NCBI RefSeq assembly: GCF_028858725.1
Contig: NC_084771.1
Coordinates: 10,258,915-10,322,914, forward strand
Direction: 5' to 3'
DNA length: 64,000 nt
Origin: Colius striatus
Taxonomy: Eukaryota > Chordata > Aves > Coliiformes > Coliidae
The notes beneath the pieces were generated by a model that saw only the letters and a list, made by a program, of their open reading frames with translations, was not told the DNA's origin and did not search any database. This document shows, in pieces, positions 37,462 through 63,564 of this stretch. Within the stretch, counting starts at the first letter, position 1, and each line of letters opens with the position of its first letter. The translations under genes were made by a program, and so were the position numbers.

Positions 37462-37672
37462 TTACACTGGAGGGGCCGAGTAGTGAATGACAGAGTTGTA
37501 ATCCGGAGGTGGGCTGTGGCATTCCAGGTTTGGATCCATAGGGAGAAGCACAGAGTCTTCCAGAGTGAAGTCCATGGTGTCCTCCTCTACCTGTACTGCT
37601 GGCTGGTATTTGACAGCCTCACGCTCGTGATCAGCTAATATGGATTCTTTGCTCTTGCTAACAGCTCTCCGC
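37462..37672 (-). CDS. KDRL: Terminal coding exon with stop
   Basis: This 211-base exon completes the split Ala codon, encodes 69 residues and stops with TAA at 37464-37462. It begins RRAVSKSKESILADHE and ends ECHSPPPDYNSVIHYSAPPV. SKSKES and SPPPDYNSV match the FLT1 tail, and the terminal PPV resembles KDR. The middle (for example VEEDTMDFTLEDSVLLP) is acidic and unlike either. PDYNSV offers a phosphotyrosine in YNSV context, corresponding to FLT1 Tyr1333. The acceptor is TTTGTTCCCAACAG. Confidence 0.92.

Positions 37673-63564: not shown

What the first reader, a model, noticed from the sequence alone, without database searches (positions are those of the whole stretch)
37462..63564. A fourth VEGF receptor (kdr-like) rather than FLT1 or KDR
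Seen: single exons mix diagnostic residues. KDR-type: SELKILIHIG, YSFQVAKGMEFLASRK, YKDPDYVRKGDARLP, YQTMLDCWHG, DSGMVLTSEE. FLT1-type: GKVVEASAFGI, VEYCKYGNLSNYL, SENNVVK, EYSTPEIY, DYIPLN, SPPPDYNSV. A mosaic throughout the gene, with unique stretches in the tail, is what a separate paralogue retaining ancestral states should show. Known: a fourth vertebrate VEGFR (kdrl) is described from fish and other non-placental vertebrates. Inferred: this is its avian orthologue.
Basis: partly seen in the sequence, partly recalled or inferred. Interest (0 to 1): 0.75.

Follow-up and report, generated by a model that had tools for sequence, protein, structure and literature searches.

The report
Bird's fourth VEGF receptor gene (kdr-like)
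The stretch is the 3' half of a bird's fourth blood-vessel growth-factor receptor gene, which humans lack but which is already known and annotated in birds, reptiles, fish and some mammals.

Summary
Thirteen minus-strand exons (63564 to 37462) with AG/GT junctions encode the split kinase and tail (505 aa) of a VEGF receptor. The residue mosaic is real (47 diagnostic columns: 21 KDR-like, 16 FLT1-like, 10 neither), though FLT4 shows one too; the tree decides. It places the window in the kdr-like (VEGFR4) clade (31 rows, 99/97). The same genome has separate KDR, FLT1 and FLT4 loci that fall in their own clades. Downstream lie two CDX genes and a CHIC gene; KIT, PDGFRA and FLT3 probes hit only the gene itself within 264 kb. 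Neither stated refutation occurs. The gene is not new: the class was reported in chicken by 2008, and the protein equals annotated Colius striatus kdr-like isoform X1 apart from two alternative acceptors. Two by-products are more notable: (1) kdr-like proteins are annotated in bats, rabbit, pikas, a kangaroo rat and a marmot, against the published eutherian loss; (2) in six bird species the neighbouring CDX4-type pair has nearly identical first exons within a species but divergent remainders, the mark of gene conversion.

The parts
63460..63564 (-). exon 17 (KDR numbering, recalled): glycine loop and catalytic lysine, GKTLGHGAFGKVVEASAFGI...VAVKMLK
   Evidence: AG/GT junctions
60959..61072 (-). 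exon 18, SELKILIHIG; tandem acceptor AAGCAG (61073-61078) allows one extra Ala, present in annotated Colius isoform X1
59968..60056 (-). exon 19, VEYCKYGNLSNYL
58492..58651 (-). exon 20, kinase insert; an acceptor 6 bases upstream adds Ser-Gln, present in annotated Colius isoform X1
57853..57950 (-). exon 21, CYSFQVAKGMEFLASRK
56828..56950 (-). exon 22, catalytic loop HRDLAARN, DFG, activation-loop tyrosines
56607..56718 (-). exon 23, ARLPLKWMAPEAIF
52388..52487 (-). exon 24, ASPYPGVQIDEDFCRRLKEG
51679..51784 (-). exon 25, YQTMLDCWHG, end of kinase
49828..49952 (-). exon 26, tail start DGKDYIPLN (tyrosine in the place of the KDR/FLT1 PLC-gamma site, recalled)
46270..46364 (-). exon 28, DSGMVLTSEE
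37462..37672 (-). last coding exon to stop, SKSKES...SPPPDYNSVIHYSAPPV

Best explanation
The window carries the last 13 coding exons of the avian kdr-like gene (kdrl, VEGFR4), the fourth member of the vertebrate VEGF receptor family, on a 23.1 Mb contig of a bird that is most likely the speckled mousebird Colius striatus. The rest of the gene (ectodomain, transmembrane and juxtamembrane exons) lies at higher coordinates, to about 63 kb beyond the window. It should act as a VEGF-A-class receptor tyrosine kinase: ligand binding by the Ig ectodomain, dimerisation, trans-phosphorylation, and PLC-gamma/ERK signalling through the tail tyrosine in GKDYIPLN. Sequence, exon structure, orthology and synteny are shown here; the signalling is inferred from zebrafish Kdrl and human KDR.
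For: Intact spliced frame. Kinase motifs GHGAFG, VAVK, HRDLAARN, DFG and DIYKDPDY kept. Tree clade 99/96 of 19 rows and 99/97 of 31 rows. Own-genome fragments from C4, C1 and C11 fall with bird KDR (98/84), bird FLT1 (99/94) and bird FLT4 (99/93). Downstream flank: two CDX homeodomain genes and a CHIC-family gene on the same strand. Window protein vs Colius striatus kdr-like isoform X1 (P0267): 505 of 505 aligned residues equal, 3 residues more in P0267 at two acceptors; that record's contig is 23,139,417 bases, C15 is 23,137,914. tblastn hits of P0267 residues 22-1317 lie in order along the locus. P0267 has Ig-type matches over residues 29-727, a VEGFR-2-type transmembrane match at 732-765 and the kinase. 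Zebrafish Kdrl responds to Vegfa with PLC-gamma, IP3 and Ca2+ (PMC6374405, passages seen).
Against: None against orthology. The sister relation of kdr-like to KDR is weak (83/77, 82/65). The first 21 residues (signal peptide) were not located. Some tblastn pieces of P0267 are below 100% (66-98%); they overlap their neighbours or read into introns, so I take these as over-extension, not divergence. No expression or ligand data were available.
Confidence: 0.98

Rival explanations
1. It is the bird FLT1 gene (VEGFR1) with some KDR-like residues.
For: FLT1-like strings and a FLT1-like C-terminal end SPPPDYNSV; 16 of 47 diagnostic columns FLT1-like.
Against: A separate FLT1 exists on C1:21146641-21158618, and a fragment of it falls with bird FLT1 (99/94); the window is outside the FLT1 clade (98/91); the FLT3 probe matches only the gene itself within 264 kb.
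Confidence: 0.01
2. It is the bird KDR gene (VEGFR2).
For: KDR chains are the closest solved structures (1y6a, E 2.9e-175); 21 of 47 diagnostic columns KDR-like.
Against: A separate KDR exists on C4:70116782-70125081, 99% identical to nightjar KDR over 178 columns, with weaker receptor-kinase matches at C4:70.20 and 70.35 Mb where KIT and PDGFRA are expected; the window is outside the KDR clade (100/97).
Confidence: 0.005
3. It is a decayed or chimeric copy, so that the mosaic reflects recombination between paralogues.
For: The mosaic itself.
Against: Open frame over 13 exons with clean junctions; kinase identical to crocodile kdr-like over 279 columns; a fish and a rabbit member show similar proportions (25/12/10 and 22/14/11 of 47).
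Confidence: 0.005

Closest known systems
Colius striatus 'vascular endothelial growth factor receptor kdr-like isoform X1' (P0267)
   Same: 505 of 505 aligned residues equal over the part encoded in the window
   Different: carries 3 more residues, explained by two alternative acceptors; very probably the same gene in another assembly
fourth VEGF receptor class, kdr-like, of Bussmann et al. 2008 (PMC2367445, whole text)
   Same: same class; the paper names Xenopus, chicken, platypus and opossum members and conserved synteny
   Different: a further bird sequence; fish rows form a separate clade within kdr-like (99/98)
KDR (VEGFR2)
   Same: split kinase; DSGMVL tail motif (human tail recalled)
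   Different: separate locus on C4 in this genome
FLT1 (VEGFR1)
   Same: SPPPDYNSV tail end and VEYCKYGNLSNYL (e.g. P0062 and P0018)
   Different: separate locus on C1 in this genome

Membership tests
kdr-like (VEGFR4) | groups with kdr-like proteins, outside FLT1, KDR and FLT4 | tested here: met
   99/96, 99/97
kdr-like (VEGFR4) | CHIC1/CDX4 synteny | tested here: met
   CDX genes about 55 kb and 77-86 kb and a CHIC-family gene 95-112 kb beyond the stop codon. An Erf4 family search of the genome did not list this CHIC gene
kdr-like (VEGFR4) | split tyrosine kinase and one transmembrane segment | tested here: met
   kinase in window; transmembrane match in P0267, 732-765, whose residues 22-1317 map along this locus
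kdr-like (VEGFR4) | seven Ig domains | tested here: inconclusive
   Ig-type matches span P0267 residues 29-727 with six separable best stretches (29-131, 138-218, 233-303, 419-542, 546-636, 642-727); the seventh was not resolved on its own
kdr-like (VEGFR4) | binds and is activated by VEGF-A | not testable with these tools
   stated for zebrafish Kdrl (PMC2367445; PMC6374405)
FLT1 | groups in FLT1 clade; FLT3 beside it | tested here: not met
KDR | groups in KDR clade; KIT/PDGFRA beside it | tested here: not met

The most novel reading that the evidence does not exclude
The fourth VEGF receptor was not lost in the ancestor of placental mammals: working kdr-like orthologues persist in bats, lagomorphs and some rodents on a long, fast-evolving branch, so the human and mouse lineages lost it later. 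Placental mammals then fall into species with three and with four VEGF receptors, a natural comparison for VEGF biology.
Probability: 0.88. Interest if true: 0.5.

Novelty: already known. Interest (0 to 1): 0.3.

Why it matters
It confirms a known case of a vertebrate receptor gene that humans lack, with all four VEGF receptors located in one bird genome. The kinase is identical between this bird and a crocodile over 279 columns, a sign of strong constraint in archosaurs. The placental gene models met on the way contradict a cited statement and raise the question what a fourth VEGF receptor does in bats and rabbits.

Tried and rejected
Rfam scan of the window: 0 matches. Tandem repeats: four short arrays. 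CHIC and CDX probes on the window alone: best E 4.6 and 5.3, no match; the flanks gave both. A Pfam scan of the intergenic frames was not possible, so the window's first 37 kb was tested only with the CHIC and CDX probes and the 120 receptor-kinase rows. An Erf4 family search of the genome gave two other loci, not the CHIC locus. Paper searches for placental kdr-like and for a CDX4 tandem pair or conversion listed no paper whose title or abstract start describes either. They cover open-licence PMC text only. Opened: PMC2367445 (whole text), PMC4471637 and PMC6374405 (passages); the rest were seen as listings.

Rows left out: the first tree used 50 of the 120 rows, picked by hand, plus the window; among those not used are kdr-like-looking gene models with odd joins (P0015, P0020, P0027). 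The second tree dropped five of those rows (P0120, P0055, P0034, P0028, P0066), all flagged as long branches; P0091, also flagged, was kept as outgroup. P0065, picked as an unassigned shark row, grouped with KIT and served as outgroup.

Full report
What is there. The window's minus strand carries 13 exons from 63564 down to 37462. All 13 acceptors are AG and all 12 internal donors GT, phases fit, and the joined frame runs open for 505 residues to the stop. The protein starts at the glycine loop of a split tyrosine kinase and ends with SPPPDYNSVIHYSAPPV.

The mosaic is real but not unique. In the kinase without its insert, 47 columns differ between human KDR and deer FLT1 and have letters in both and in the window. 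The window is KDR-like at 21, FLT1-like at 16, neither at 10. A bird KDR gives 35/9/3; a bird FLT1 8/31/8; a fish kdr-like 25/12/10; rabbit kdr-like 22/14/11. This genome's FLT4 fragment gives 17/15/4 of 36 columns, so a mosaic rules out KDR and FLT1 but not FLT4; the tree does that.

Phylogeny. With 51 rows and 279 kinase columns the window lies in a 19-row kdr-like clade (99/96). With 61 rows (46 of those 51, 12 more kdr-like proteins, 3 fragments of this genome) the clade has 31 rows (99/97). Window, Colius and Crocodylus are identical over these 279 columns. KDR is the nearest other large class, with weak support (82/65).

The four receptors of one genome. The window is C15:10258915-10322914 of a 1.21 Gb genome. 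The kinase probe finds three further VEGF receptor loci: C4:70116782-70125081, C1:21146641-21158618 and C11:14323249-14328487. Fragments of these (178, 263 and 167 residues) fall with bird KDR (98/84), bird FLT1 (99/94) and bird FLT4 (99/93) respectively. Weaker receptor-kinase matches lie near each (C4:70.20 and 70.35 Mb, C1:21.006 Mb, C11:14.17-14.20 Mb), where KIT/PDGFRA, FLT3 and PDGFRB/CSF1R are expected; that naming is inferred, not tested.

Synteny. I fetched 100 kb on each side. Downstream, on the same strand, lie two CDX-type genes (homeodomain exons at window coordinates -26786 to -26637 with -30673 to -30629, and -45509 to -45363 with -48159 to -48118) and a CHIC-family gene from -57707 to -74197. 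KIT, PDGFRA and FLT3 probes match only the gene itself. Genes upstream of the receptor were not identified.

The rest of the gene. Colius striatus kdr-like isoform X1 (P0267, 1317 aa) has the highest summed score of the full-length rows compared (2820 bits; next 2706), and its residues 22-1317 match in order from window coordinate 126674 to 37465. Over the window part it differs only by three more residues at two acceptors: one Ala at a tandem AAGCAG acceptor of exon 18, and Ser-Gln at exon 20. Its record's contig is 23,139,417 bases, against 23,137,914 for C15. The species is therefore very probably Colius striatus, and the gene is already annotated. P0267 has Ig-type matches over residues 29-727, a VEGFR-2-type transmembrane match and the kinase.

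Known work. Bussmann et al. 2008 (PMC2367445, whole text) name the class kdr-like, mention Xenopus, chicken, platypus and opossum members, and state that it is missing in eutherian mammals. In zebrafish, Vegfa acting through Kdrl is linked to PLC-gamma, IP3 and Ca2+ (PMC6374405, passages). The window keeps the catalytic motifs and a tail tyrosine at the recalled PLC-gamma site, so the same mechanism is the best inference for birds.

Placental orthologues. Of the 120 rows listed (4161 proteins passed), 10 are named eutherians: five bats (Artibeus, Myotis, Pipistrellus, Saccopteryx, Rousettus), rabbit, two pikas, Dipodomys and Marmota, all named kdr-like. Nine are 1281-1355 aa; Ochotona curzoniae is 794 aa. 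Eight of them, plus two bat rows, were put in the tree; these ten rows form one clade (100/100, stem 0.11) inside amniote kdr-like. All ten keep VAVK, HRD and DFG; all carry VWKG where the other kdr-like rows printed have VRKG. Two checked, rabbit and Myotis, have the Ig, transmembrane and kinase matches. Identity to the window protein is 66-69% in four checked; the Artibeus alignment ends at window residue 406 of 505, so that model lacks or changes the tail end. These are gene models: I saw no DNA or expression. They show that the loss is not shared by all eutherians. The listing is capped and its rows were picked by score, so it does not tell which other placentals have or lack the gene. I found no paper saying so in five searches of open PMC text, which is weak evidence of absence.

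CDX pair. Both CDX genes read open in the three exons found. Their DNA is 82-89% alike over exons 2 and 3 but holds a 302-base identical run in exon 1. I compared protein pairs named CDX-4 or CDX-1-like, taken as pairs from species name and, except Sylvia, equal contig length. In six birds (Colius, Cyrtonyx, Manacus, Pitta, Calyptomena, Sylvia) exon 1 is 94-99% identical between copies within a species, while the remainder is 74-78%. Between Colius and the other five the same copy is 67-84% identical in exon 1 but 88-96% in the remainder (identities over aligned residues). Of 11 pairs tried, two could not be split (Formicarius, Nipponia), Merops looks like one gene annotated twice, and the lizard Rhineura (59.5% in exon 1, 67.8% in the rest) and the caecilian Rhinatrema (83.4%, 79.8%) do not show the bird pattern. 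This is what recurrent gene conversion limited to exon 1 predicts. Coelacanths are reported to have one Cdx4 (PMC4471637, passages).

Verdict. The finding is correct in observation and interpretation. As a discovery it is already known; the by-products are more interesting than the finding.

Noticed in passing
C15, window coordinates -48159 to -17278 (loci L020-L023): Two tandem CDX4-type genes. In six bird species exon 1 is 94-99% identical between the copies, but 67-84% between Colius and the other five species for the same copy, while the rest is 74-78% and 88-96%: concerted evolution by gene conversion limited to exon 1. The closest rows to the copy nearer to kdr-like are named CDX-1-like.
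   Followed up: partly
P0241, P0266, P0281, P0283, P0293, P0304, P0309, P0323, P0324, P0325: Ten annotated eutherian kdr-like proteins (five bats, rabbit, two pikas, Dipodomys, Marmota), against the published loss of the gene in eutherians; the eight put in the tree, with two more bat rows, form one clade with a long stem within kdr-like.
   Followed up: partly
window 61073-61078 and 58652-58657: Tandem acceptors: AAGCAG before exon 18 gives plus or minus one Ala in the kinase N-lobe (of nine kdr-like rows looked at, six carry the Ala; P0002, P0253 and Gekko P0001 do not), and an acceptor 6 bases upstream of exon 20 gives plus or minus Ser-Gln in the kinase insert.
   Followed up: partly
C15, window coordinates -43751 to -43523 (L023) and -22568 to -22340 (L021): A 229-base segment 97% identical between the first introns of the two CDX genes: a second conversion tract or a shared regulatory element.
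   Followed up: no
window 31406-31612 and 28153-28458: Open stretches whose translations recall ends of avian interspersed-repeat proteins; resemblance from memory only.
   Followed up: no
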